Virus record (IMG/VR): IMGVR_UViG_3300030380_000288
Location: 1-29,322 of that record
DNA: 29,322 nucleotides
From: a virus
Direction: 5' to 3' (one strand)
Shown: piece by piece, positions 689 through 29,171 of the stretch
Numbering within the stretch: the stretch's first letter is position 1
How the letters are laid out: every line of letters begins with the position of its first letter
The notes under the pieces: model-generated
What the model was told of the DNA's origin: nothing
Database searches by the model: none
Seen by the model: only the letters and a program-made list of their open reading frames with translations
Position numbers and translations under genes: made by a program

Positions 689-1561
689 ATGGAGGGCAGA
701 TGCGTGCTAATCATTTATCCTTATGCGCAGGAATCGGAGGCATCGACCTTGGGCTGCGAAGAGTGGTCAGAGGCTTGCGAACCGTGGCTATGGTGGAGAG
801 GGAAGGATTCTGTGTCTCGCACCTGGCGTCAAAGATGGAAGCGGGAGAACTGGATCCGTGTCCTATCTACCCGGACCTACTTCGGTTCCCTTGGGACAAG
901 TATCGAGGACTTGTGGATATCGTCTCTGGTGGCTTCCCGTGTCAACCTTTTAGCCACGCTGGAAGTCGCAAAGCCACCGAAGATAGCCGACACCTCTGGC
1001 CCCACATCAGAGCAGGAGTCTCTGTTCTCCGACCGAGCTTTTGCTTCTTCGAGAACGTCGATGGGATCGCCTCAGCCAAGTCACCCGGATACCACTCAGT
1101 TCTCCACCATGTCCTCAGCGACTTGGAAGAAATGGGTTTCAGGGCAACGGCGGGACAGTTCTCAGCGGAGGAAGTTGGCGCGCCACACCTGCGGAAGAGA
1201 TGGTTTATCTTGGCCCACTCCAGATGTAACGATGCGGCCACACGAGGGAAATGTGAGGCTGCTTCGGAAGGGAGTGGAGAACGGTATGGACAAAGCGGAA
1301 GCGGATGCGATGCTGGGCCGGGACATAGCGAAGCCTCAAGGGAAGTTAAAGGCTTGGCCTACTCCGACAGCGAGAGATTGGAAGGGTGGAAACAACCCCT
1401 CACAGAATGTTCCAACCAATGGCCTGTTGGGCCGAGCTGTCCCCAGAGATCCGACGAGCCTCCCCGGACAACTCAACCCGGACTGGGTGGACACGTTGAT
1501 GGGGTTTCCAATCGGGTGGACAGGCTTAGGGCATTGGGAAACGCAGTCGTGCCTCAAGTAG
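689..1561 (+). CDS. Overlapping +1-frame ORF with WPTPTA / LNPxWV-GFPxGWT signature
   Basis: This 290-codon frame runs through almost the whole methyltransferase gene, shifted by +1. Its C-terminal half carries WPTP twice (SWPTPDVTM and AWPTPTARDWKGG) and ends with LNPDWVDTLMGFPIGWTGL. I recognise these as a signature that recurs in phage proteins encoded beside C5 methyltransferases. The two WPTP copies lie exactly opposite the LAHS and LAYS repeats of the methyltransferase frame, and the GWT end lies just before ALGNAVVPQ, so both frames look constrained. The first ATG (689) has only a poor ribosome site, and internal ATGs at 1061 and 1109 have none that I can see. The true start, or a frameshift route of expression, is therefore open. 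The function is unknown. Confidence 0.5.
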   Translation: MEGRCVLIIYPYAQESEASTLGCEEWSEACEPWLWWRGKDSVSRTWRQRWKRENWIRVLSTRTYFGSLGTSIEDLWISSLVASRVNLLATLEVAKPPKIADTSGPTSEQESLFSDRAFASSRTSMGSPQPSHPDTTQFSTMSSATWKKWVSGQRRDSSQRRKLARHTCGRDGLSWPTPDVTMRPHEGNVRLLRKGVENGMDKAEADAMLGRDIAKPQGKLKAWPTPTARDWKGGNNPSQNVPTNGLLGRAVPRDPTSLPGQLNPDWVDTLMGFPIGWTGLGHWETQSCLK

Positions 1562-1614
1562 CCGCTACAGCTTTTAGCACCCTGTACCATCAACTCGTTG
1601 CAGCCCCCGACTAA
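700..1614 (+). CDS. C5-cytosine DNA methyltransferase (Dcm-like)
   Basis: A 304-residue DNA (cytosine-5) methyltransferase that transfers a methyl group from S-adenosylmethionine to cytosine. The conserved motifs appear in order: motif I near residues 6-17 (LSLCAGIGGIDLGL), motif IV with the catalytic cysteine (GGFPCQPFSHAG, about 77-89), motif VI (FFENV), motif VIII (RKRWFILA), a variable target-recognition region of about 95 residues, and motif IX/X (DRLRALGNAVVPQVA). The start is ATG 700, with GGAGGG at 691-696 close upstream. No cognate restriction endonuclease is visible, so it is probably an orphan enzyme protecting phage DNA from host restriction. The same DNA has a long second open frame with its own recognisable motifs; see the overlapping entry. 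Confidence 0.93.
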   Translation: MRANHLSLCAGIGGIDLGLRRVVRGLRTVAMVEREGFCVSHLASKMEAGELDPCPIYPDLLRFPWDKYRGLVDIVSGGFPCQPFSHAGSRKATEDSRHLWPHIRAGVSVLRPSFCFFENVDGIASAKSPGYHSVLHHVLSDLEEMGFRATAGQFSAEEVGAPHLRKRWFILAHSRCNDAATRGKCEAASEGSGERYGQSGSGCDAGPGHSEASREVKGLAYSDSERLEGWKQPLTECSNQWPVGPSCPQRSDEPPRTTQPGLGGHVDGVSNRVDRLRALGNAVVPQVAATAFSTLYHQLVAAPD

Positions 1615-16794: not shown

Positions 16795-19346
16795 TGCTTG
16801 TTGCTTACCCGATCCCCAACTTGACGGGCGGCGTGAGCCAACAACCGGCAAACAGTCGGCCCATTGGTCAGTGCGAGTCTTCGGTCAATGCCGTCCCTCA
16901 CCCTATCGAGGGGCTGACCAAAAGACCGCCAGCGAACCATGTCAAAGAGTTGATGATGGCCCCAACCAACACGCCCTTCATCCAACCAATCAACCGCAGC
17001 TCCACTGAGCAATACATTGTGACAATTGATGGTACTGGTAAAACGGGTGTCAAAGTCTTTGACCTAGATGGTGTAGAGCAGACGGTCAACGTAGATGCTA
17101 ATGTTGTTGATGCGTACTTACAATCATCAACGCCTCGTGACACCTTCAAGATGACCACCGTGGCTGATGTGTCTTTCATTGCAAACACTGCGACACCGGT
17201 GGCAATGGATACAAGTATTACGTCCAAGTATTCTTTGGATCTCACATCACCGCCCTTTGAGGCTTTGATTGATGTGAAGGGAAGTCCTTCGAGCTTTCAA
17301 GAGCTTGACATCAAAGTGTACTTAAGCTCTGATAACCTTTTTGATGGGGATAATTCACCCAATACAACCATCACAGATCCTCTTTTTACTACATTCCCTG
17401 AATCAGGCAGTTCAGATACGGCAAAATTCACAGGTAATACATCTGCCGCAAAAATTGCAAGACGAATTAGAGATAAGGCTGACTTTGATGCAACAAACCG
17501 TCAGAGCAGCGACACTGGTGAATTTAGCACATCTTCAAATGCTATTAAGACCAATCGGGAGCGAGACAACACATCCACGGTTTATCTGAGAAATACAACG
17601 CCTGCGGACTTTGAGTTAACGATTGATGATGGGCTAAATAATGCAGTAATCTTGGGTATTAAAGATAAGGTAGATAACTTTACTGATCTGCCTCCTATTG
17701 CCAAGAACAAAATGTTAATTGAGGTTGCAGGCAGTCCCGAGACAGAGATTGATGATTACTACGTCCGCTTCGAGCGTGATGGTGGATCTGATGTTGGTGT
17801 TGGTAAAGGCCGCTGGGTTGAGACAACCGCTGGCGGGCTGAACAACAACTACGACTTCAACACGATGCCCCTGATCCTGATCCGCAGGCCCGACAACCAG
17901 TTCGACCTCAAGCGAGCTGATGGTGTTGACCCATCCTCTAACGTCCACGCTGATGTGAAGTATGAGGACTTCAAGTTTGCTCCACGACAAGTGGGGGATG
18001 CTTTGACCAACCCCAACCCATCTTTCGTCGGCCTCAAGATCACTGATATCGCGTTCTTCAAGAACCGCCTGGTGTTTATCTCTGGCGAGAATGTGATCCT
18101 GTCAGAGACTGCTCAATATTTCAACTTCTTCCGGACAACCCTCACAACGCTCAAGGACTCTGCTCCTATTGATGTGACGGTCGGTGGTACGTCTGTCAAC
18201 AAGCTGGAAGCTGCTGTCCCGTTTGCAGACCAGCTTGTGCTTTTCTCCTCGCAGGCTCAGTTCACCCTCCAAGGTGAGGGTGTATTGACACCTAAGACTG
18301 TCTCTATCACTCCGGCAACAAACTTCGACATCACTAGCAATCTCCGGCCCAGTGTCTCTGGCAACAGCCTGTTCTTCGGGTTCCCCAGAGGCAGCTTCAG
18401 TGGGCTGCGAGAGTATTACAAGACCAACGATACTGATGTCCAGTTTGATGCCATTGAGATCAGTCGGGATGTCCCGAAGTACATCAACGGCACCATCAAG
18501 ACCATTGCTTCCTCCAGCCATGAGAACTTGGTGGTGGCGTTGACGGATACTGACCCCACCTCCCTGTATGTTTACCGCTACTTCATGGCGGGCACCCAGC
18601 GTGTCCAGTCAGCGTGGACTAAGTTCACCTTCGAGAGCCGTAACATCGTTGACATCTTCTTCCGTGAGACAAGCCTGTATATGGTGATGACCAACGGAGG
18701 CAAGCTCGTGCTTGAAGAGATGGACATGGAGTCGGGCCTCAAGGATGATGGCGTGACTTATGTGACCTATCTGGATCGTCGTGTGAAGAAGACCAGTGGC
18801 ACATTCGATCAGGCCACAGGTAAAACCACATTTACTGGTTTGGACTACACCCCCACAGCATCGGCCCAAGTGGTGCGTAACGATGGGCTGATCCTCAAGG
18901 TAACTGACCAAGCCGACGGATCAATCAGTGTTGAGGGTGACTTCAACACCTCTACCGTCTACATCGGTGAGCCTTACACCATGACCTATGAGTTCTCTGA
19001 GCCAGTCATGCAGTCTGAATCAGGAGGGCGTAGAGTCCCTGTGGTGAATGGACGCCAGCAGATCCGATACATGACAGTGATCTTCGATGACACCTCGTTC
19101 TTCTCTATCAAGGTGACGCCTGAGTTTGGTGAGACTTTCACCTACCCATACAGCGGCAAGTTCATCGCTGATGGCTCTGCAACCCTGGGAACGCTGGTGG
19201 TGCAGGATGAGACTTTCCGTGTCCCTGTGTTCGCCCAGACCGACAAGGTGAAGGTCGAGCTCATCAACGACAGTCCGCTGCCCTCCAACTTCCAGTCAGC
19301 GACCTTTGAAATCAACTACACAACCCGTGTGCGTCAACGTCTGTGA
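16794..19346 (+). CDS. Tail tubular protein B (nozzle), T7 gp12-like
   Basis: 850 residues (T7 gp12 has 794). The start PIPNLTGGVSQQPANSRPIGQC and FKNRLVFISGENVILSET are characteristic. It forms the tail nozzle through which DNA passes. Residues about 160-310 (bases 17281-17740) are encoded by clearly AT-richer DNA (35-40% GC in sampled lines against 57% at 18181-18240). That suggests a swapped surface domain within a conserved frame. The next gene starts on its stop codon (GTGA). Confidence 0.93.
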   Translation: MLVAYPIPNLTGGVSQQPANSRPIGQCESSVNAVPHPIEGLTKRPPANHVKELMMAPTNTPFIQPINRSSTEQYIVTIDGTGKTGVKVFDLDGVEQTVNVDANVVDAYLQSSTPRDTFKMTTVADVSFIANTATPVAMDTSITSKYSLDLTSPPFEALIDVKGSPSSFQELDIKVYLSSDNLFDGDNSPNTTITDPLFTTFPESGSSDTAKFTGNTSAAKIARRIRDKADFDATNRQSSDTGEFSTSSNAIKTNRERDNTSTVYLRNTTPADFELTIDDGLNNAVILGIKDKVDNFTDLPPIAKNKMLIEVAGSPETEIDDYYVRFERDGGSDVGVGKGRWVETTAGGLNNNYDFNTMPLILIRRPDNQFDLKRADGVDPSSNVHADVKYEDFKFAPRQVGDALTNPNPSFVGLKITDIAFFKNRLVFISGENVILSETAQYFNFFRTTLTTLKDSAPIDVTVGGTSVNKLEAAVPFADQLVLFSSQAQFTLQGEGVLTPKTVSITPATNFDITSNLRPSVSGNSLFFGFPRGSFSGLREYYKTNDTDVQFDAIEISRDVPKYINGTIKTIASSSHENLVVALTDTDPTSLYVYRYFMAGTQRVQSAWTKFTFESRNIVDIFFRETSLYMVMTNGGKLVLEEMDMESGLKDDGVTYVTYLDRRVKKTSGTFDQATGKTTFTGLDYTPTASAQVVRNDGLILKVTDQADGSISVEGDFNTSTVYIGEPYTMTYEFSEPVMQSESGGRRVPVVNGRQQIRYMTVIFDDTSFFSIKVTPEFGETFTYPYSGKFIADGSATLGTLVVQDETFRVPVFAQTDKVKVELINDSPLPSNFQSATFEINYTTRVRQRL

Positions 19347-19780
19347 TTACCTTCAGGACACCTACTGTTCCTGATATTGCTCACATCGCCAACAATCTGC
19401 GACAGGGCGACTATGAGGAAATCGAAGCACTCGGAGAGAAACCATTCGAGGCAATCATGGATGGCTACCTACATGGGCAGACCAAGGTTGCTTGTCTCGA
19501 CAAACCCATCTGTATCTTTGGTGTTACGGATCATGGGCCTGCGGGCCAGATTTGGATGCTGGGGACAGATGACATTCGTAAGGTGCCCGTTGAGTTCTGC
19601 AAGAAATCGAAGCAGATCGTCGATGAGTACCAGCAGCAGTATGAAGTTCTGTGGAACATCATTGACTGCCGCAACACCGGAAACATTGCTTGGCTGAAGT
19701 GGCTAGGCTTTGAGTTCGGAGATCCTTTTAATCATGGCCCTGCGGGGTATCAATTCATGGAGTTTTCAAGATGGCAATAG
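19343..19780 (+). CDS. Internal virion protein gp13-like, GNAT-fold
   Basis: 145 residues (T7 gp13 has 138). The start MITFRTPTVPDIAHIANNLR, the middle PICIFGVTDHGPAGQIWMLGTD and the end GNIAWLKWLGFEF follow the layout of T7 gp13 and of GNAT-type acetyltransferase folds. In T7 gp13 is an assembly factor needed for the inner core. Whether acetyl-CoA binding is retained is not evident. GTG 19343 overlaps the nozzle stop codon. Confidence 0.82.
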   Translation: MITFRTPTVPDIAHIANNLRQGDYEEIEALGEKPFEAIMDGYLHGQTKVACLDKPICIFGVTDHGPAGQIWMLGTDDIRKVPVEFCKKSKQIVDEYQQQYEVLWNIIDCRNTGNIAWLKWLGFEFGDPFNHGPAGYQFMEFSRWQ

Positions 19781-20466
19781 GAATGGTTATGGCCGGTCTT
19801 GGCATTGCCAACTCTATTATGGGGTTTGGTGCTGCCAAACGGAAAGCCCGGGCCGAAAACGAATATAGATACCGACTTCAGATCCAACGTAACCAGCAGT
19901 ATGCCCAACAGATTGCATACCAACGCCAGCTCATGGCTGCTCAGTCTGCCCGATATCGAGCCCAGGCTAAGGCGGCAAAGACCCGACTTGAAGGCCAGTA
20001 CACAGATACTTTGGAAGCCATCTCGGAGAGAAAAGAGAATGCCGCAAGTCAGATCAACAACATCTTCGTCCAGTCTCAAAATGCCCAAGGGTCAGATATG
20101 GCTCGACGAGGTGAGTCACTGACTGAGGGCAACAGCGTTGTGGCCCTTCAACAACAATTCCAACGCAATCAAGCGACTCTCAGCGAAGTTCAACACAACG
20201 CTCTGGAGTCGTTTATGCGTCGATCCCAGAACCAACTCAAGACTGCTAGAGACGCTACAGCGGCCCAACTGGCAGGATCTCGTCCAATGCCTATGGCACC
20301 TATCGCTCCACCGGATCAACTGCAACAAGCTCAGGGGCCGAGTACAGCAGGGCTACTAATGAACATCGGCTCCAACATTGCTTCGGGGTACATGGCAGGA
20401 GCTCAGATGCTGCCTGATGGTGTCCCGGCCACTTTCAATAATGCTATGTTTGGGCCTGAAGGATAA
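19771..20466 (+). CDS. Internal virion protein gp14-like (ejected core protein)
   Basis: 231 residues (T7 gp14 has 196). It starts with a glycine-rich hydrophobic segment (MVMAGLGIANSIMGFGAAKRK) followed by a long Gln/Ala/Arg-rich helical region, the composition of T7 gp14, which inserts in the host outer membrane after ejection. The C-terminal part has PMPMAPIAPP and a second hydrophobic stretch near GLLMNIGSNIASGYM. It overlaps the preceding gene by ten bases. Position and architecture give the assignment. Confidence 0.85.
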   Translation: MAIGMVMAGLGIANSIMGFGAAKRKARAENEYRYRLQIQRNQQYAQQIAYQRQLMAAQSARYRAQAKAAKTRLEGQYTDTLEAISERKENAASQINNIFVQSQNAQGSDMARRGESLTEGNSVVALQQQFQRNQATLSEVQHNALESFMRRSQNQLKTARDATAAQLAGSRPMPMAPIAPPDQLQQAQGPSTAGLLMNIGSNIASGYMAGAQMLPDGVPATFNNAMFGPEG

Positions 20467-20469
20467 ACC

Positions 20470-23031
20470 ATGTCACAATTCACAGCACCCGCAGGCATCC
20501 TTGGCCGTCCCGACTTCTCAGGCGATGACTACACCCTTCAGGCATTCCAGAACCTGTCCAATACTCTTGGTCAGTTGGCAACCACCAACGCTAAGAGAGA
20601 GGTTGAACAAGCCTATGAGTATGGCCTCATGGTTGAGCAACTGGGAGCAGAGGAAGCCAAGAATGCTTCTGAGTTCGGCAAGTTGGTTGACCAAGGAAAG
20701 GTCAGTAATCTCGCCAACTCTTGGATCGAGGTGGGTGGTCAAGTAGGCCGAGCCAAGAAAGACTTCATCTCTTGGTCAACTATGGCTGAAGAGAACATGA
20801 ATCTGTCCCTAGACAACAATCAGTTCGGTTTGCGGGAAGGGGACAACCCAGAAGAGTCTTACAACAACTGGAAAGCCTCTGTGCTGGCGGATCAACGCCA
20901 GAAGATGAATGGTGCTGGGTACTACTACGGTAAGACCTTTGGTGGTCTTATGGACAAGTGGGAGTCCGAGTTCAAGCCTCGGGCATTCAAGGCTCGTGCA
21001 GCTTTGCAGCGTGACGATCTTCGTCGTGGTGTGGCTGACGATATTACGGATAAGGTGAAAAAGAAAGCTAAGGACCTTCCAGGGCTGATGTCCGACCTGA
21101 CCACGATGTTGTCTAACACAGAAAACCGTGGTGCCCTCGGCAACGAGGGATACCGTAAGTACGTCTACGATGTGCTTGAGCAACTTGCCGAAAATCCAGA
21201 TACTGCTGTAGCTGCCAACCATGCCCTTGAGAACATGCGTGAAGAGACGGGCCTCAGGTGGGCAGATCACTACGCAGAAGAGCTCAACGCTTCTGAAAAC
21301 AGGCGTGATGCTGCCTCGATGCCTCAGCTCACTGAAGACGCAAGAGATGCCGTATATCTTGCAATTCAGGCAAACCGAACTAAGGGTGATGATGTTGAGT
21401 TCAAACTGTTGGCTGCCAACATGTCCCACTTGCCTGAAGAGGCCCAACATAAAGCCATTACAGGGGCCCTACGACAAGCCGCTGATGACTTTGTTACTAA
21501 TAAAAACCCTGAAGGCATGGAGGTTCTTCTGGATCAGCTTGAGGACACTAAGTCCCCCACTGGTGAACCTTACAGTGAGGTGATGGGTATTGAGATTGCG
21601 TCGATCCGTAACTATCTCAAGAAGGGCGAAGAAGATGCTGACGCTAAGAAGCTCCAGAAACTTCAACTCGATACCGCTTTGGCTGAAGGTAAGTTGGAGG
21701 GTGCACTGGGCTTTGTCGTAACTGAAATTCAACAAGAGGCGGAGCAGAACGGTGGAGCTGTAGACATCAGTGAAAGAGAAGTCAGAGAAAGAGTTATGGC
21801 CCGCCTAGAGGCTATGGGAGAAGATAGATTCTTCACTGAAGGTGATGTGTTCTTCGATGCTCAAAACTCATTCTTCACAAGTGGTGTGGGTACATTTGCT
21901 TCCTCATATAGAGCCATTGGCGAAGATCAAAGGGAGACAGGTGCGGAGGTTCTCCAACAAATCATTCGAGACAATCCCACTGATGTATCAGCTGCTATCA
22001 GACAACTACAAACGGCGGGCGTAGGTCTAAGGGCGGACACTCTTCAAACAATCAAAGTAAGGCTCGATGGATATTACGAAGCAATGTCGCAGACAAGACA
22101 ATCTTCTCAAGCTACGCACAAGCGGAACTTGATGACAGCACTAGACACAAAGTTTGGATTCAGGGATCTGAGCGAAGGCAAAATTGGTCTTAGTAATTTT
22201 AAAAGTCAATCTCAGATCATTGCAGCAAATGATTTCCTAGATCAACTCGATACTCAATACTCTGAAAGTTTGTCCGCAAAAATAGATGGGTATCAAACTA
22301 TGAACCCTGACGAGCCAATCACTGCTGACATCATGGCAACCTTTGCTGCGGAAGCATCAAAAGAAGTGATTGAAGCAGCGACAGCAGATGGTGCTTTCAC
22401 TTACGAAAGCCCTCAATCCATGATTGAACGCATCAAGGCCGCAGGGGAAGAAAGAGATTTTGGCACACGAGGCTCAGTCTTACCAACTAGTGGGGCCGAA
22501 GTTGGCGGTGGTGCCTTCTTTACGGATAATCTTCAAAAAAACATTGGAGACTTGCGGACAGCAATTCAGAATCAGGACGCATCAACTGCTGCCTCTGAGC
22601 TTGCCTTGATTAGACCTCAAGCTGACAGCCTGATTAACACTGTTGAAAGGGGCATCCAACTAACAGGTCAAAACCTTTCGGCCTACCCCATTTCACGTTT
22701 GTTTACTCAACAACGACCTGTCTCAATCGAAGAACTTGAGAGGGGCACGTTTGATACTGAGCAGGGCCCAGATGACATTTCACTGACAGGCTTCAACTAC
22801 GATCCAACAGTTCAACCCATGTTTGATGGTATGGCTGATCTTGAGTCCGCCATCAAGGAATACAACGATGTTGGATCGGCTGGTGGAGACATTAATACAA
22901 CTCGTATTATTCGGCTTATCAACACAATCAACAAACGAGCGGCAGCGAGTGATGACATTACAGGTGTTCGGAGTTTTGAAGCGTTCCTCAGTTTCCAGAA
23001 AGACCTATTTGAATTTAGAGGGTATAACTAA
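20470..23031 (+). CDS. Internal virion protein gp15-like (ejected core protein)
   Basis: 853 residues (T7 gp15 has 747), mostly helical, charged, and without cysteine in the parts I checked. Early segments such as LQAFQNLSNTLGQLATTNAKREVE and LANSWIEVGGQVGRAKKDF resemble gp15-type core proteins, which with gp16 form the periplasmic conduit for DNA entry. AAGGAT lies just before ATG 20470. Bases around 22080-22700 are AT-richer (38% GC at 22141-22200), another mosaic patch. The stop overlaps the next start (TAATG). Confidence 0.85.
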   Translation: MSQFTAPAGILGRPDFSGDDYTLQAFQNLSNTLGQLATTNAKREVEQAYEYGLMVEQLGAEEAKNASEFGKLVDQGKVSNLANSWIEVGGQVGRAKKDFISWSTMAEENMNLSLDNNQFGLREGDNPEESYNNWKASVLADQRQKMNGAGYYYGKTFGGLMDKWESEFKPRAFKARAALQRDDLRRGVADDITDKVKKKAKDLPGLMSDLTTMLSNTENRGALGNEGYRKYVYDVLEQLAENPDTAVAANHALENMREETGLRWADHYAEELNASENRRDAASMPQLTEDARDAVYLAIQANRTKGDDVEFKLLAANMSHLPEEAQHKAITGALRQAADDFVTNKNPEGMEVLLDQLEDTKSPTGEPYSEVMGIEIASIRNYLKKGEEDADAKKLQKLQLDTALAEGKLEGALGFVVTEIQQEAEQNGGAVDISEREVRERVMARLEAMGEDRFFTEGDVFFDAQNSFFTSGVGTFASSYRAIGEDQRETGAEVLQQIIRDNPTDVSAAIRQLQTAGVGLRADTLQTIKVRLDGYYEAMSQTRQSSQATHKRNLMTALDTKFGFRDLSEGKIGLSNFKSQSQIIAANDFLDQLDTQYSESLSAKIDGYQTMNPDEPITADIMATFAAEASKEVIEAATADGAFTYESPQSMIERIKAAGEERDFGTRGSVLPTSGAEVGGGAFFTDNLQKNIGDLRTAIQNQDASTAASELALIRPQADSLINTVERGIQLTGQNLSAYPISRLFTQQRPVSIEELERGTFDTEQGPDDISLTGFNYDPTVQPMFDGMADLESAIKEYNDVGSAGGDINTTRIIRLINTINKRAAASDDITGVRSFEAFLSFQKDLFEFRGYN

Positions 23032-26000
23032 TGGCAGAAGAGTTCAAACCTATTGACTTTGATAGTCTCGGATCTCAAAAGAAAAGAGAGATCCCCGAAG
23101 GCCAAGAGTCCTCTACTTTCGACCTCAATGATGATGGAAGCGTAGGCTTTGGAGATATTCTCACAGGTCTAGGTGATGTTGTTGCTGCACCTTTCCGTGG
23201 TGTCCTTGATGCAGGCCAGGGTCTTATTGACACTGCTGACATGGTGACTAACTGGGTAGGCATTGACATCCCTGATACAGACATCAACTTCCTCGGTGAC
23301 AGTAAGACAATGGTGGGCCGTGGTGCTCAAGGCTTGACCAACTTCTTGGCGGGCTTTGTACCTATCGCAGGCCAAATCTCCAAGGGAGCCAAAGGTGTCC
23401 AGTTCTTGTCCAAAGCTGCTCAAGCAGCCAAGACAACCAAGAAGGGTGCTGCGGCTGTCTCTGTAGGTCGTGGTGCTGTCGCGGGTGGTATTACTGACTT
23501 CGCTGTGATGGACGCTGAGATGGGCAACCTGTCCACGATGATCCAAGACACGCCTGCGTTGCAGGGACTACAGAACCCGATCACTGACTTCTTGGCCCAT
23601 GAGGGCGATGACAGTGAACTAGAGAAGAGGATCAAGAACGTCATGGAGGGGGCCGGACTCGGCATCTTCTTCGATGGCATGATTGAGTCTGTCAAAGCAA
23701 TCCGAGCAGGTCAACGTGTCCGTAGGGCCGGTGGTACGCCTGAAGAGGCTGCGGCTGCTAGGGACGCTGAGATCAAGCCTACAAAGCCTGAAGCTCAAGC
23801 AGCAGACGATGTGGTGTTTGAGGCAGAAGAGGGCGTGATGTATCACGGCACAGCTTCGGAACTTGACCCAAGTTCTATTGATCCATACAAAACTCGGGTT
23901 AATGGTTTGTACGGGCCAGGACTATATCTGACAGAAAATCCAAATGTTGCTCACGGATACTCAAAGGCAAGAGCAGGAGCAGAAGGTACTAGGCGTCTTT
24001 ACAAAGTAAAATTGAATGAGACAAACCTCATTGACATGGATATGAAGTTTGCGGACGCTGATCCAGCAGTTCGTAAGGAGTTTGAAAAACTACACAGTGG
24101 TGTGGCAGATGATTTTGTAGAGGCCGACATAGATCAGCTGAACACTATGACACTTGGCGACATTTATAGAGATGTCACCAAAACTCTAAGTGAAAATCCT
24201 TTCATGACAGAGGGAGAAGCATTGGGGCTTATTGACGAGTTCCAAGGTGCAGTAAATAGATTGGGATACGATGGTGTTAAGCACCTTGGTGGTCAGATAG
24301 TTGGTAATGTCGATCACCGCGTCACAATCCTGTTTGACCCATCGAACACAACGTCTCATGGTCGAGCCAACCCTATCGCTTCGATGGATGACATTGCATC
24401 CACTGGCAAGCCTAAGAAGCCTGACGCTAGATCAACTGTAAAAGTATATCGGGGTGGCGAAGTTAACCCAGACAATCCCTTAACATATACAACCTCCAAA
24501 AAAGGTGAAGCAAACCTTTATGCTGAGGGAAAAAAGACTAGCGAGATTTTAACTTTTGAATTGGATGCAAACAGAATTGCAAGCGAAGAAGAAGTTAGAG
24601 AAACTCTCACTGAACTTGGCTTTACTCAAGTAAAAAAAGATAATGATGAATATGTTGGGGGAATGATTCACGAGTACCTAGATCCAGAATTTAAAGGTGA
24701 AGGGTTTTACCTTGGTGACGGGGTTGATGCTAGACTGGCAAAAGCACTACAAGATAAAGGCTTTGATGCTTACAAAGCTGTAGGCACTGATGTAAGAGGA
24801 ACTAACAGGTCCACTGAGGAGATAGTGCTTGTTGGTAAAAACCCCAAACAGGTTAAAGGCCCAAGAGATCCCTCAGATCCACCTGTAGACGATGGAGCAG
24901 GTCCAAGAGACTCTGGGGGTGACGATCTCGAAGGCCGCAAGCCTGGTGCTCGTGGCGAGAAGTATTTTGAAGAGAACTTGGATCGTGTTGGTGATGACAG
25001 GGGCGTTCGTCAACTCGTGAAAGATGTTGTTGATGATGCCAGAGAAGCTGGCGAGGTGGCTCCAGCGGAGCGTAAGTCACACGCTGAGATGTATAGCGAA
25101 GCCGCAGATGATCTGGATGAACTTGACCAAATGATGGGTGAGTCCAGTGGCAGGCTGAAAGAGGCTTTGGCTGACGAGGGAGAAAAGGCTGTCTCAGGTA
25201 TCCAAAGGGTGCGAAGACTTCGACTCCTCCAGAAGAGAGCTTCTGATAAAGCTGTAGAAGCAGCAAGGGCTGTAGCAGCTGAAACATCACCCGGTATGGA
25301 CAAGCTCCGGGCTTTTGTCGAGGCAAGGCAGAAACTTCGTTCAGTCACCCTTGCGGGTATTGAAGTGAAGCGTGCACTGGCCCGAGAACTCTCAGGCTTG
25401 GCTTACACCGTTGATGACCTCCCAGACGTTCCTCACATCACAGCCAAGTTGGATGATGGTGTAGATGACGCTCTTGATGATGTGTTTTCTGAAGCTGGTG
25501 GTGGTAATACCGACATAGGTGCAAGCAGGATTAGAGAGGAAGCCCAAAAGATTGTTGATATTGCTGACACATCAGGTGATACGGCTGTAGTTGGAGCAGT
25601 TCGCAAGACTCCCGACATCGGCAAGATGACGATGAGTGTTTGGGTCAACTTTCTTCTGTCCGGCCCTAAGACACAGCTTGTGAACGCTTTATCTGGTGCA
25701 CTGGCAACTTCATTCAGGCCCGCAGAAAAAGCCGCAGGTCGGTTCTTTACTGGGGATGTAAGTGGGTCTATGTCTCAACTGGCTCAGTACAACTACATTC
25801 TTCAGAATGCGGGGGCCGCAACCAGGCTTGCAAAGCAATCTTTGTTTAATAACAAACCAATCTTGCTTAAAGGAGGCAAGGTGTCTGAAGTCTTGGACGC
25901 ATCTGGACAAGAAGCCTCTGCTGTCATGGCGGCCAAGTACGGAATTTTGGGGTTATTGGGGAAGGGAGTTACGTTACCGACAAGAGTCCTTCAGACTGTC

Positions 26001-27617
26001 GATGAGTTCTTCAAGCAGTTGAACTACAGATCCCAAGTGATGGTTGACCTGAAAACTACAGCGGCTCAAAAAGGTTATGACGATAACTGGGTAAGAGAGT
26101 CTGCTGAGAAGATGTTCTCACAGGACGAGATGTTTACGAAAGACTCTATTCGTCGCCAAGCGGCTAGAACAGCTAAAGAAGAAGGACTGGAGCCTGGATC
26201 TAAAGAGTTCAATACGTTTGTCCGTCGCTTCTATGGTGAGATGTATGACCAAGAACTTGTCCAGATTGCCAACCAAGGTAAGCGGGCCGCAGAAGATGTG
26301 ACCTTTACCCGAGAGCTAAGTGAAAAGGGGCAGGGAAGGATTATTAGGGGGGCGAAGAAACTTCAAGATTTGAAAGGGAGTGGAGTTTTTGGAACCGTCC
26401 TACTTCCATTTGTGAGAACGCCAGCACAACTTGTTGAGTTCTTCCATAGACGCTCACTGGGTCTTGTTTCTGAAGCGTTGCAGGGCAACGTCGCAGATGC
26501 CAACAGAGGTCTGGGGGCTCAGTTCCAACGCCTTCGTGAAGGCAGTATCAAGGAGCTTGCGGGGGCGACCAAAGAGCAGCGTGCGGACTTTATGGGTCGG
26601 GTAGCTGCGGGATCAACCCTGTATGGTTCTATTTATGCGGCAGCGTCGATGGACATGATTACTGGTTCAGGGCCCAAGGATGTTAATCAACGTCGCCTTC
26701 TTGAGCAGTCAGGATGGCAACCCTACTCAGTCAAAGTTGGTGATACTTACTACTCCTACCGACGCTTTGACCCATTCTCCAGCTTCATTCAAGTGATTGC
26801 GGATTTTCAGGACCACTACAAATACAACACAAGATTCAAAGGTGAGGATCAAGTAGAAGCGGATGTGGCCGAAGAGTTTGGACTTGGTATGGCATTTGTT
26901 ACCGCCAACTTGGTTCGCAACAAAAGTTTCTTTGCAGGCTTGTCTGCTTTCGCAGATGCAATTGGCGACCCATCTGGTTTTTCTGCCCTTAAGTTCTTTC
27001 GCCAGTTGGGCGGATCAATCGTCCCATCGGTCTTGTCTCAAACCAATCAAGAATACTTTGACAACGAGTTGAGGGAACCTAGATCATTCTTGGATGCAAT
27101 GAAGCGTCGTTTCCCTGGACTCTCCGATGAACTCCCACCACGCCGTGACCTCTTCGGTAAACCACTGACCGTTGCAGAGACTATTACAAGCCCCATCCTC
27201 CCAGGACCGCTCGAAGTCAAGACCACATCAAGAAGTGCTGTGCGTCGTGAGCTGGCGGAGGTTGGAGCCAACTTCGGCAACCCAAGGAAAACACGCGGCG
27301 ACTTGGATCTGACCCAATACAAGATGGGTAAGTATGACGCTTATGACCGCTTCCAAGTATTGGTAGGCGAGATCAGGCTCGGAGGCAGAACTATGGAGCA
27401 ACAGATGAGCCGTCTGATCCAAAGAAGCCAATACAAGCGTATGGGCCGAGAGTCCAAGATGGAGCAACTGAACAAGATTCTTCGTCAGTATCGTGATGCT
27501 GCTTGGTGGCAACTTGTGAAGGAAAACCCCCAGATCAAGAGAGACTTGCGTACCAGCGATCAAAATGAGGCCCGAGATATGCGAGGTCAACAACAACTAC
27601 CACTGAGTTACCAATAA
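23031..27617 (+). CDS. Giant internal virion protein gp16-like with ADP-ribosyltransferase-like insert
   Basis: 1528 residues (T7 gp16 has 1318). Modules in order: residues 31-42 form a dockerin/EF-hand-like loop (DxNxDGxVxxxD); 45-230 are glycine/alanine-rich with amphipathic helices; 268-440 are ART-like (VMYHGT, GLYGPGLYLTENP, a late GYDGV and RVTILFDPSN); 468-610 hold a second ART-like module (VKVYRGG, YTTSKKGEANLYA, GFDAYKA, STEEIVLVGKNP); a Pro/Asp/Gly linker follows at about 610-645; next comes a helical Ala-rich part. From about 866 on is the conserved inner-core part (SVWVNFLLSGP, LLPFVRTPAQ, SGPKDVNQRRL, SYRRFDPFSSF). I see no transglycosylase domain like that of T7 gp16. The ART region has low GC. 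Ejection into the host is expected from the family. Confidence 0.85.
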   Translation: MAEEFKPIDFDSLGSQKKREIPEGQESSTFDLNDDGSVGFGDILTGLGDVVAAPFRGVLDAGQGLIDTADMVTNWVGIDIPDTDINFLGDSKTMVGRGAQGLTNFLAGFVPIAGQISKGAKGVQFLSKAAQAAKTTKKGAAAVSVGRGAVAGGITDFAVMDAEMGNLSTMIQDTPALQGLQNPITDFLAHEGDDSELEKRIKNVMEGAGLGIFFDGMIESVKAIRAGQRVRRAGGTPEEAAAARDAEIKPTKPEAQAADDVVFEAEEGVMYHGTASELDPSSIDPYKTRVNGLYGPGLYLTENPNVAHGYSKARAGAEGTRRLYKVKLNETNLIDMDMKFADADPAVRKEFEKLHSGVADDFVEADIDQLNTMTLGDIYRDVTKTLSENPFMTEGEALGLIDEFQGAVNRLGYDGVKHLGGQIVGNVDHRVTILFDPSNTTSHGRANPIASMDDIASTGKPKKPDARSTVKVYRGGEVNPDNPLTYTTSKKGEANLYAEGKKTSEILTFELDANRIASEEEVRETLTELGFTQVKKDNDEYVGGMIHEYLDPEFKGEGFYLGDGVDARLAKALQDKGFDAYKAVGTDVRGTNRSTEEIVLVGKNPKQVKGPRDPSDPPVDDGAGPRDSGGDDLEGRKPGARGEKYFEENLDRVGDDRGVRQLVKDVVDDAREAGEVAPAERKSHAEMYSEAADDLDELDQMMGESSGRLKEALADEGEKAVSGIQRVRRLRLLQKRASDKAVEAARAVAAETSPGMDKLRAFVEARQKLRSVTLAGIEVKRALARELSGLAYTVDDLPDVPHITAKLDDGVDDALDDVFSEAGGGNTDIGASRIREEAQKIVDIADTSGDTAVVGAVRKTPDIGKMTMSVWVNFLLSGPKTQLVNALSGALATSFRPAEKAAGRFFTGDVSGSMSQLAQYNYILQNAGAATRLAKQSLFNNKPILLKGGKVSEVLDASGQEASAVMAAKYGILGLLGKGVTLPTRVLQTVDEFFKQLNYRSQVMVDLKTTAAQKGYDDNWVRESAEKMFSQDEMFTKDSIRRQAARTAKEEGLEPGSKEFNTFVRRFYGEMYDQELVQIANQGKRAAEDVTFTRELSEKGQGRIIRGAKKLQDLKGSGVFGTVLLPFVRTPAQLVEFFHRRSLGLVSEALQGNVADANRGLGAQFQRLREGSIKELAGATKEQRADFMGRVAAGSTLYGSIYAAASMDMITGSGPKDVNQRRLLEQSGWQPYSVKVGDTYYSYRRFDPFSSFIQVIADFQDHYKYNTRFKGEDQVEADVAEEFGLGMAFVTANLVRNKSFFAGLSAFADAIGDPSGFSALKFFRQLGGSIVPSVLSQTNQEYFDNELREPRSFLDAMKRRFPGLSDELPPRRDLFGKPLTVAETITSPILPGPLEVKTTSRSAVRRELAEVGANFGNPRKTRGDLDLTQYKMGKYDAYDRFQVLVGEIRLGGRTMEQQMSRLIQRSQYKRMGRESKMEQLNKILRQYRDAAWWQLVKENPQIKRDLRTSDQNEARDMRGQQQLPLSYQ

Positions 27618-27629
27618 GGATAAGAAACC

Positions 27630-29171
27630 ATGCCAAACAGTTACTATGAGGAAGCAGGAGCAGTAGGGACAGCCTCTGTCTCGTTCACTGACTCTCAGCT
27701 TGAATACTTAAACAAAGCCCACCTATTCGTAAAAGCCATTACCAGTAGTGGGACAACCCAAGACTTTACCTCGGGCTACACAGTATCTGTTGCAGGGTCT
27801 ACGACAACTGTGGACACTTCAGGTCTGACATTTCCAACAGGAACGGCGACCATCCGGATCTTCCGAACAACCCCTGTAGATGACCTACTGACCACGTTCA
27901 CCAACGCATCCCTGCTTCGGGCCGAAGAACTCAACAACTCTACCAAGCAGCTCCTGTTTGCTCTCCAAGAGAACGGTGAGCAGAACCTTGGTGCTATTCC
28001 TTTGGATGCTGACAACAAATTCAACGCAGGCTCCAAGGCGATCAAGAACGTCGAAGATCCTGTAGATGGTCAAGAGGTTGCTACCAAGGCGTATGTGGAT
28101 GCCTTGACTTCCTTCAGCACCAGCCCAACATCTGTGCCTCGGGTCTACACCAGCACCATTGGGGCTATGACAACCTCCGGTTCCGACAAGACATTGGCAT
28201 TGTCTCCTCAACCTCTCTCCGTTCAGAACGAGATGTTCATCGTAACTGTGGGTGGTATTGTCCAACAGCCGAACACTGACTTCACGGTAACTACTGATGG
28301 CACTACAACAACGCTCACGATTACCAATGGTAACTCTGAGGAGGGTGAAACAGAAGTCATGGCCCTGGCATTTGGTAACACCAAGTCTGTCTTTGCATTC
28401 CCCGTAACAGGTGAGGCACTCGCAGCAAGCGAGACTCCTATCACCATCAAGGGGCACGCCAGCCAATCTGCGGATCTCTTTAACATCACCGACAGCTCAA
28501 ACACGACGCTGGCGAAGGTGGCTGCTGATGGGGATCTGACTTGTGTTGATGTGACCGCCAGCGGTAACGCAGCGGTGACTGGAACCCTGTCTGCCGCCGC
28601 AACGACCGCAAGCAGCTTGACTGTAAACGGAGCCACACAGGTCAATGGTGATCTGACTGTGACAGGTACGGCCACGATTTCTGGTGGTATCTCTGCACTT
28701 CCCCCAGGTGCTGTGGTTCCTTATGCCGCAGGGTCGGCCCCGACAGGCTTCTTGGTCTGCGACGGAACAGCGGTAAGCCGCTCAACGTACTCAACCTTGT
28801 TTGACATCATTGGTGAGGCATACGGAGTTGGTGACGGTTCCAGCACATTTAACCTGCCAAACCTTGAGGGCCGGTTCCCAATGGGTGTTGATGGTAGTAA
28901 TGCGTTGGCGACTACTGGTGGTGGTACAGCAACACTTTCGGAAGCAAACTTGCCCGACCACACGCACACTTATTCAAAAACTACAGATGTATCGACATCA
29001 ATCAGTTTGAGCGCTGGAAGTCAGGTTGACATTAATTCACCCGATAGAAGCATCTCAGCCTCTTCTACAGTGACTACTTCTTCCATAAACACCGGATCAG
29101 GCACCGGATCAGGCACCGCGTTCAACGTCACTCCCGCCTTCATCGCCCTCAAATACATCATCAAGACCTAA
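27630..29171 (+). CDS. Tail fibre, T7 gp17-like N-terminus with tail-collar C-terminus
   Basis: 513 residues. Residues 1-150 (YYEEAGAVGTASVSFT, LLRAEELNNSTKQLLFALQE, DGQEVATKAYVDAL) match the T7 fibre N-terminal attachment domain. A beta-rich Ser/Thr stem with repeated VTGT-like segments follows. From about 352, PPGAVVPYAAGSAPTGFLVCDG and FNLPNLEGRFPMG form a phage tail-collar domain, and the end PAFIALKYIIKT is typical. It probably binds the host receptor. AAGGA at 27616-27620 precedes ATG 27630. It ends with a 12-base tandem repeat encoding GSGT units. Confidence 0.92.
   Translation: MPNSYYEEAGAVGTASVSFTDSQLEYLNKAHLFVKAITSSGTTQDFTSGYTVSVAGSTTTVDTSGLTFPTGTATIRIFRTTPVDDLLTTFTNASLLRAEELNNSTKQLLFALQENGEQNLGAIPLDADNKFNAGSKAIKNVEDPVDGQEVATKAYVDALTSFSTSPTSVPRVYTSTIGAMTTSGSDKTLALSPQPLSVQNEMFIVTVGGIVQQPNTDFTVTTDGTTTTLTITNGNSEEGETEVMALAFGNTKSVFAFPVTGEALAASETPITIKGHASQSADLFNITDSSNTTLAKVAADGDLTCVDVTASGNAAVTGTLSAAATTASSLTVNGATQVNGDLTVTGTATISGGISALPPGAVVPYAAGSAPTGFLVCDGTAVSRSTYSTLFDIIGEAYGVGDGSSTFNLPNLEGRFPMGVDGSNALATTGGGTATLSEANLPDHTHTYSKTTDVSTSISLSAGSQVDINSPDRSISASSTVTTSSINTGSGTGSGTAFNVTPAFIALKYIIKT
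29091..29117 (+). repeat. 12-base tandem repeat in the fibre gene
   Basis: ACCGGATCAGGC occurs at 29091-29102 and again at 29103-29114, followed by ACC. Being a multiple of three, copy changes would keep the frame and lengthen or shorten a Gly-Ser-Gly-Thr linker just before the fibre C-terminus. Confidence 0.8.

What the first reader, a model, noticed from the sequence alone, without database searches (positions are those of the whole stretch)
23830..24880. Tandem ADP-ribosyltransferase-like domains inside an ejected inner-core protein
Residues 268-440 (YHGT, GLYGPGLYLTENP, RVTILFDPSN) and 468-610 (VYRGG, YTTS, STEEIVLV) look like two diverged ART-fold modules. Each ends with a Gly-Tyr/Phe-Asp segment and a strand followed by FDP or KNP. 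They are bounded by Pro/Ala/Asp-rich linkers, and their DNA is much lower in GC (42 of 120 bases at 24541-24660) than flanking gene parts (34 of 60 at 23461-23520). Because gp16 homologues are ejected, this would deliver a toxin-like effector with the genome, comparable in concept to T4 Alt but built into the DNA-ejection machine.
Basis: partly seen in the sequence, partly recalled or inferred. Interest (0 to 1): 0.78.

Follow-up and report, generated by a model that had tools for sequence, protein, structure and literature searches.

The report
Enzyme cassettes inside a phage DNA-injection protein
A short-tailed marine-type phage carries two ADP-ribosyltransferase-like domains spliced into the large protein that it is expected to inject ahead of its DNA, and close relatives lack one or both, so the injection machine appears to double as a swappable carrier of host-modifying enzymes.

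Summary
The 1528-aa internal virion protein D (gp16 position) of a T7-like phage contains two ART-fold modules at aa ~266-440 and ~469-606. Module 1 belongs to the ART-PolyVal (PF18760) neighbourhood: below Pfam's cut-off itself, but homologous to modules in other gp16s that pass. Module 2 has no Pfam family of its own; its AlphaFold2 model is confident (pLDDT mostly 75-92), and the chains aligned to it are nearly all ARTs (KptA, ParT, TreX, cholera toxin, PARP14; Z 3-5.4). The modules are mutually homologous (E 4e-5; controls 0.14-0.18).

They are cassettes: L034 lacks module 1, L001 and L031 have module 1 only, the window has both. Module 2 recurs in unrelated proteins, including phage C75C1's. 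The zone they occupy varies from 221 to 1639 aa among 55 distinct gp16s; 8 of 45 representatives match ART-PolyVal.

Best reading: a virion-delivered 'polyvalent' effector, ARTs carried in with the genome to modify host molecules. Delivery and activity are inferred, not shown. Module 1 lacks the canonical strand-5 acidic residue; only module 2 (R474-Y486-E597) has a full candidate triad. The principle is known (Iyer 2017; T4 Alt; N4 vRNAP). The T7-type ejection-protein cargo bay appears to be a new variant.

The parts
23031..27617 (+). Internal virion protein D (gp16-position ejection protein), 1528 aa, carrier of both modules
   Evidence: phrog_6651 'internal virion protein' E 9e-62 over aa 853-1521; tblastn to internal virion protein D of Roseobacter/Pelagibacter phages and to P-SSP7 gp16
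23325..23753 (+). Conserved N-block of this gp16 family (aa ~99-241), immediately upstream of the cargo zone
   Evidence: Profile found in 55 distinct gp16 proteins
23826..24350 (+). ART module 1 (aa 266-440), H-Y type, ART-PolyVal neighbourhood
   Evidence: PF18760/DUF3990; profile hits PARP12, tankyrase, cholix, exotoxin A among solved chains; missing as a block in L034
23844..23846 (+). H272, candidate NAD-binding His of module 1 (strand 1)
   Evidence: Invariant in the aligned relatives
23925..23927 (+). Y299, candidate Tyr of module 1 (GxGLY, strand 2)
   Evidence: Conserved in nearly all relatives
24351..24434 (+). Ser/Ala/Pro/Asp/Lys-rich linker between the modules (aa 441-468); L001 carries a ~22-aa Pro/Ala linker in place of module 2
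   Evidence: Composition; L001 alignment
24417..24854 (+). Module 2 cassette (aa 463-608; ART core ~469-606), present/absent between 90%-identical gp16s
   Evidence: Absent from L001 and L002; 25-65% identical copies in unrelated large proteins; AlphaFold2 pLDDT mostly 75-92; ART structural matches
24450..24452 (+). R474, candidate strand-1 residue of module 2 (His in distant members)
   Evidence: Invariant in the close subgroup; FHGG in the L022-L026 subgroup
24486..24488 (+). Y486 in LTYTT (strand 2), equivalent to Y299
   Evidence: Invariant in module 2 relatives; strand in the model
24819..24821 (+). E597 (with E596) in the last strand of module 2, candidate catalytic acid
   Evidence: Invariant in the close subgroup; strand at aa 594-601 in the model
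24855..24965 (+). Gly/Asp/Pro-rich linker downstream of module 2 (aa 609-645)
   Evidence: Composition; identical in L001 over aa 609-640
25641..27614 (+). Conserved gp16 core (aa 871-1528)
   Evidence: Profile A4 retrieves 438 viral loci
20470..23031 (+). gp15-position gene (853 aa), directly upstream
   Evidence: Position only; no PHROG or significant Pfam hit
19771..20466 (+). gp14-like internal virion protein
   Evidence: phrog_805 E 8e-8
19343..19780 (+). gp13-like internal virion protein
   Evidence: phrog_308 E 7e-39
27630..29171 (+). Tail fibre with T7-type N-terminal domain, directly downstream
   Evidence: PF03906 E 2e-15, PF07484 E 3e-21

Best explanation
The gp16-position ejection protein of this T7-like phage carries two tandem ADP-ribosyltransferase modules as exchangeable cargo between its N-terminal block and its conserved core. 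Shown by computation: both modules are ART-superfamily domains (module 2 by fold, module 1 by sequence), they are homologous to each other, and each is present or absent as a unit in relatives. Inferred: gp16 sits in the internal core, leaves the head partly unfolded with the other core proteins, refolds across the envelope, and exposes the flexibly tethered ARTs to cytoplasmic NAD+. There they ADP-ribosylate (or attach ADP-ribose-linked groups to) host proteins or nucleic acids in the first minutes, favouring phage transcription or blunting defence. The expected copy number is low (4-6 gp16 per particle in T7), which suits a catalytic rather than a stoichiometric effector. Module 2 (R474, Y486, E597) is the likelier active enzyme; module 1 (H272, Y299, no acidic residue at the canonical strand-5 position) is less certain. 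My rough probabilities: ART fold of both 0.9; delivered into the cell 0.75; at least one module enzymatically active on a host target 0.6.
For: Module 1: PF18760 1.9e-4 and DUF3990 3e-4; homologous (6e-5) to L087, whose module passes the PF18760 cut-off; five further gp16-family proteins pass. A profile of module 1 relatives picks out PARP12, tankyrases, PARP10, cholix and exotoxin A from all PDB sequences (E 0.004-1). Module 2: AF2 pLDDT mostly 75-92; nearly all VIA-align rows for model residues 203-353 are ARTs, among them KptA 1wfx Z 5.4, Albireti toxin 5.3, TreX 5.1, ParT 5.1, MbcT 4.6, cholera toxin 4.1, PARP14 4.0, VIP2 3.3; 5 of 10 family members hit PF18760. Module 1 vs module 2 profiles: 69% probability, E 4e-5, against 0.3-0.4% for either versus the gp16 core. 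Cassettes: L001 gp16, 90% identical, lacks only module 2 as a large block; L034 lacks L031's residues 233-444 with 74%/69% identical flanks; low GC3; module 2 in C75C1, L008, L009, L010, L019. Purifying selection on module 1 (dN/dS 0.13, core 0.19). Delivery context: internal-core synteny and homology to P-SSP7 gp16; [quoted passage not shown] PMC5512222 and PMC9503650 propose the same role for virion-packaged ARTs.
Against: No experiment. Foldseek alone gave no significant PDB match, and VIA Z values of 3-5.4 are modest on their own; what carries weight is that nearly all the aligned folds are ARTs. Module 1 could not be modelled (pLDDT 36 alone, mostly <50 in the joint model). Module 1 has V431 at the strand-5 position of the PARP catalytic Glu. 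No detectable relation to T7 gp16, so T7 topology cannot be transferred residue by residue; no strongly hydrophobic 19-residue segment marks where the protein crosses the membrane (best KD 1.26). Isolated gp16 relatives tested (Pelagibacter, Roseobacter, Desulfovibrio and Caulobacter S2B phages) and T7 lack PF18760, so the cargo is optional.
Confidence: 0.72

Rival explanations
1. Pseudo-enzymes: the modules keep the ART fold but no catalysis, and serve as spacers or as binding domains (for NAD+, nucleic acid or a virion partner) within gp16.
For: Module 1 lacks the canonical strand-5 acidic residue (V431). Distant module 2 relatives (L022-L026 subgroup) have N at the E597 position. gp16 cores without the modules exist (L034), so the domains are not needed for ejection.
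Against: H/Y in module 1 and R/Y/EE in module 2 are among the most conserved positions, as expected for an active site; a spacer would not need purifying selection at dN/dS 0.13. Mono-ART PARPs without the Glu are active (own knowledge).
Confidence: 0.2
2. The ARTs act in the producing cell or inside the particle: on phage proteins during assembly, on the ejectosome itself, or against a second phage, rather than on the next host.
For: The gene lies in the structural region, so the protein is expected to be made in bulk late in infection. PMC9503650 itself mentions an alternative in which such ARTs counter immunity aimed at packaging components.
Against: Fusion to the ejected core protein would be an odd choice if delivery had no use; ARTs recur in ejection proteins of otherwise unrelated phages.
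Confidence: 0.12
3. Counter-defence: the ARTs or their NAD use neutralise host NAD-linked or nucleic-acid-targeting immunity during entry, rather than reprogramming transcription.
For: PMC9503650 describes virion-packaged NAD+/ADP-ribose enzymes as countering NAD-derived signals; the cassettes are swapped between close relatives, as is usual for genes in arms races.
Against: No host, defence locus or target is known; not separable from transcription control by sequence.
Confidence: 0.3
4. Chance resemblance or another fold: short motifs misread as ART.
For: Pfam scores for the window itself are below the curated cut-offs.
Against: Four lines agree: family transitivity, PDB profile hits, profile-profile match with controls, and the module 2 fold.
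Confidence: 0.04

Closest known systems
ART-PolyVal domain (PF18760) of phage and plasmid polyvalent proteins (Iyer et al. 2017, PMC5512222), prototype in the N4-like vRNAP of Roseovarius Plymouth podovirus 1
   Same: H-Y-type ART inside a large, multi-domain, virion-associated phage protein predicted to be injected; several copies per protein also described there
   Different: Host protein here is a T7/P-SSP7-type internal virion protein D, not an N4 vRNAP or DarB-like giant; the window's modules fall below the Pfam cut-off; module 2 replaces His by Arg
T4 Alt (Alt/VIP2, R-S-E-2 clade)
   Same: Phage ART packaged in the head and injected with DNA; the same logic of use
   Different: Separate protein, different ART clade; no sequence link found here; VIP2 itself only Z 3.3 in structure
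T7 gp16 / P-SSP7 gp16 ejection proteins
   Same: Gene position, size class, internal-core synteny; homology to P-SSP7 gp16
   Different: No detectable sequence similarity to T7 gp16; no transglycosylase; carries ART cargo instead
SR18_gp040c of Caulobacter phage SR18 (relatives Jess A, RapA, BL94)
   Same: 2002-aa protein with a strong PF18760 domain (83.9 bits) in a cultured phage; annotated only as hypothetical protein
   Different: Rauchvirus, not T7-like; its status as an ejection protein is not tested here
MuF-ART fusions (PMC9503650)
   Same: ART fused to a head structural protein for delivery
   Different: MuF is a structural component of the head; here the carrier is the internal core / DNA-ejection protein

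Membership tests
ADP-ribosyltransferase superfamily | Split beta-sheet ART fold | tested here: met
   Module 2: well-predicted model, nearly all structural matches of that part are ARTs, Z 3-5.4. Module 1: not modelled; sequence only
ADP-ribosyltransferase superfamily | H/R (strand 1), Y/S (strand 2), E/D/Q (strand 5) triad | tested here: inconclusive
   Module 2 R474-Y486-E597 all conserved in the close subgroup; module 1 H272-Y299 conserved but V431 at the strand-5 position, with H429 and D436 as possible substitutes
ADP-ribosyltransferase superfamily | NAD+ binding and ADP-ribosyl transfer | not testable with these tools
   Needs biochemistry
ART-PolyVal (PF18760) | Score at or above the curated 31.2 bits | tested here: not met
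   Window module 1 scores 17-23 bits; its relative L087 scores 31.8 and L046 71.8. Filed as 'related to', not as a formal member
Polyvalent protein (Iyer 2017) | Large phage/plasmid protein combining several domains predicted to be delivered with DNA | tested here: met
   Two ART modules plus ejection core in one chain; sister gp16s carry methyltransferase, SLT, DUF7831 or DUF7178. Delivery itself is inferred
Alt/VIP2 clade (T4 Alt) | R-S-E active site and clade-specific sequence | tested here: inconclusive
   Module 2 has R and E, but Y/T rather than STS; Pfam affinity of its relatives is PF18760, and distant members have His at the R position
Internal virion protein D (phrog_6651 / P-SSP7 gp16 type) | Profile match and gene order gp13-14-15-16-tail fibre | tested here: met
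T7 gp16 (phrog_342) | Sequence similarity and N-terminal transglycosylase | tested here: not met
   hhalign 0.2% probability; T7 hits phrog_342, the window protein hits phrog_6651; no SLT in the window protein

The most novel reading that the evidence does not exclude
The region between the N-block and the core of T7/P-SSP7-type gp16 is a general cargo bay: an insertion zone (221-1639 aa in 55 distinct proteins) in which marine and other podophages exchange effector domains (ARTs in several lineages, methyltransferases, unknown domains). The DNA-ejection machine would thus also work as a protein-injection system, comparable to effectors loaded on a secretion machine, with Arg-type (R-Y-E) ARTs as one new cargo family.
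Probability: 0.5. Interest if true: 0.78.

Novelty: new variant of a known kind. Interest (0 to 1): 0.62.

Why it matters
T7-like ejection proteins are mostly studied as a DNA conduit; PMC9503650 counts ARTs in only about 3% of podoviruses. If the cargo-bay reading holds, a sizeable share of short-tailed phages could deliver enzymes before any phage gene is expressed. The natural present/absent pairs (L034, L031, L001, window) then make it directly testable what such an enzyme buys the phage. It also gives a sequence-defined insertion point tolerated by the ejection machine.

Tried and rejected
Single-sequence AlphaFold2 of module 1 failed (pLDDT 36); this spent one of two jobs, and the joint model resolved only module 2. 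Several mixed alignments split one module over the other because the two are homologous; only A12 was used for folding. Foldseek against PDB gave no significant hit for the joint model; in the viral library two matches passed E 1e-3 and a deposited ART-PolyVal-like protein ranked 12th at E 0.06. The module 2 profile found no relative by sequence in PDB and none in ~85,000 bacterial/archaeal genomes by its conserved peptides (patterns only, so not proof of absence). The GNT-I, LytR_C and STAT_int Pfam hits are sub-threshold and ignored. Homology to T7 gp16 was looked for and not found. No macrodomain gene in the window. Literature searches for ARTs in internal virion proteins found no relevant report; the library lacks most subscription papers and preprints, so prior mention is possible.

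Full report
Observation. The gene at 23031-27617 (+) encodes 1528 aa. The two motif-bearing stretches are lower in GC and especially GC3 (0.37 and 0.27) than the other large parts of the gene (0.40-0.51).

What the gene is. The window is a 29,322-base viral contig with a T7-type RNA polymerase (phrog_414; best matches Pelagibacter phages at 34% identity), portal, tubular tail B, gp13- and gp14-like internal proteins, a gp15-position gene, this gene and a T7-type tail fibre. The C-terminal half matches phrog_6651 'internal virion protein' (9e-62) and internal virion protein D of Roseobacter and Pelagibacter phages, and also gp16 of Prochlorococcus phage P-SSP7 (4e-10). No link to T7 gp16 itself was detected (hhalign 0.2%; T7 belongs to phrog_342), and the T7 transglycosylase is missing. 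[quoted passage not shown] That this protein is ejected is therefore an inference from homology and position.

Module 1 (aa ~266-440). Alone it hits PF18760 ART-PolyVal at 1.9e-4 and DUF3990 at 3e-4, both below the curated cut-offs. A profile from the window and L001 finds the same module in gp16s of L028-L033 and L035 (3e-59 or better) and in L087 (6e-5). L087 itself scores above the PF18760 cut-off, as do gp16-family proteins L046, L061, L039, L116 and L063. A profile of 13 relatives run against all PDB sequences returns mainly PARP12, tankyrases, PARP10, cholix and exotoxin A at E 0.004-1; its formally best row is a repeat artefact of a designed protein. H272 and G-x-G-L-Y299 are the conserved core, together with a C-terminal GYDG-x-x-H-x-G-G ... 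H-x-V-x-I-x-F-D-P motif. At the position of the PARP catalytic Glu (four residues before F435) the window has V431; H429 two residues before it, and D436, are conserved in most relatives. Iyer et al. describe the polyvalent ARTs as H-Y-D (PMC5512222); which residue is the D could not be decided here. Between window and L001 module 1 evolves under purifying selection (dN/dS 0.13 versus 0.19 for the core).

Module 2 (aa ~469-606). It has no Pfam family of its own, but 25-65% identical copies exist in further viral loci and in Phage C75C1; half of the ten members scanned hit PF18760 weakly. The AlphaFold2 model built on 15 rows is confident for this part (block means mostly 74-92). Nearly all VIA-align rows for this part are ARTs: KptA, Albireti toxin, TreX, ParT, MbcT, pertussis-like PltA, cholera toxin, PARP14, PARP4, HopU1, ExoS, VIP2. 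Z values (3-5.4) are moderate; the weight comes from the consistency. In the model R474, Y486 and E596/E597 lie in the first, second and last strands, where ART active-site residues belong. Four sampled distant members (L022, L023, L025, L026) have His at the R474 position, so this looks like an Arg variant of the H-Y-E type rather than a T4 Alt relative.

The two modules are homologous. Profile-profile comparison gives 69% and E 4e-5 along the whole domain; the same profiles against the gp16 core give 0.3-0.4% and E 0.14-0.18.

Cassette behaviour. L034 gp16 lacks L031's residues 233-444 while the flanks are 74% and 69% identical. L001 and L031 have module 1 only. L001 is 90% identical to the window protein and differs by one large block: 146 aa of module 2 replaced by about 22 aa of Pro/Ala-rich linker, with identical sequence resuming at KGPRDPSDPPVDDGAG. 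Module 2 occurs in other large proteins at the gp16 position: in L008 after a gp14-like gene (phrog_805, 6e-24) and before a tail fibre, in L010 before a tail fibre, and in L009 and C75C1. Across 55 distinct gp16s the stretch between the conserved N-block and the core ranges from 221 to 1639 aa, median 539. Of 45 representatives 8 hit PF18760; others carry methyltransferase, DUF7831, DUF7178 or a weak nucleoside deoxyribosyltransferase match, and a 1934-aa gp16-family protein (L116) carries SLT plus ART. The sample is the best-scoring 80 of 438 loci, so the fractions are not population estimates.

How it most likely works. The modules ride in the ejected protein on flexible linkers, enter the cell with or before the DNA, refold and use host NAD+ to modify host molecules early, as T4 Alt does. 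Shown: ART fold or family, tandem homology, cassette exchange, internal-core context. Inferred: ejection, cytoplasmic exposure, catalysis, targets. Module 2 is the better candidate enzyme. Counter-defence and transcription control cannot be told apart by sequence.

Known versus new. Virion-delivered ARTs in large phage proteins are an established proposal (PMC5512222, PMC9503650; N4-like vRNAP fusion, MuF fusions, T4 Alt). I found no report of ARTs in T7/P-SSP7-type internal virion proteins in the papers available, though most subscription literature was not searchable. I therefore class it as a new variant of a known kind. A cultured phage with a comparable feature is Caulobacter phage SR18 (PF18760, 83.9 bits, in a 2002-aa protein).

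Noticed in passing
window 689-1561 and 700-1614 (+): Two ORFs of 290 and 304 aa, both starting with ATG, overlap almost completely in different frames; one may be spurious or it may be a true overprinted pair.
   Followed up: no
L046 175-8010; L065 409-8022; L060 1936-7989; L091 1912-7998: gp16-family proteins of 2018-2612 aa with cargo zones over 1000 aa that hold PF18760, DUF7178, a methyltransferase and DUF7831, mostly unassigned sequence.
   Followed up: partly
L127 5291-11299 (Caulobacter phage SR18 gp040c) and Caulobacter phages RapA, BL94, Jess A: ART-PolyVal domain at 83.9 bits in a 2002-aa protein in a cultured phage; the matching regions in RapA, BL94 and Jess A are annotated 'lysis protein'.
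   Followed up: partly
L125 364-12123 (G052, 5054-aa frame): A giant protein with several ART-PolyVal stretches in one reading frame.
   Followed up: no
L124 4264-6204 and 6189-8915: A gp16 with an ART module whose two halves lie in overlapping ORFs of different frames; a sequencing error, a decayed copy or a programmed frameshift.
   Followed up: no
L022-L026: A distant module 2 subgroup with FHGG in place of YRGG (His for Arg) and Asn at the E597 position in aligned members, in proteins of about 1880-2260 aa where the frame is complete, from a different phage group.
   Followed up: partly
window aa ~99-241 (23325-23753): A conserved N-block of gp16 (RLSxL...NPxTExL...DDxExEGRLKNxxEG) with no family assigned; it may be the part that docks in the core or tunnel.
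   Followed up: no
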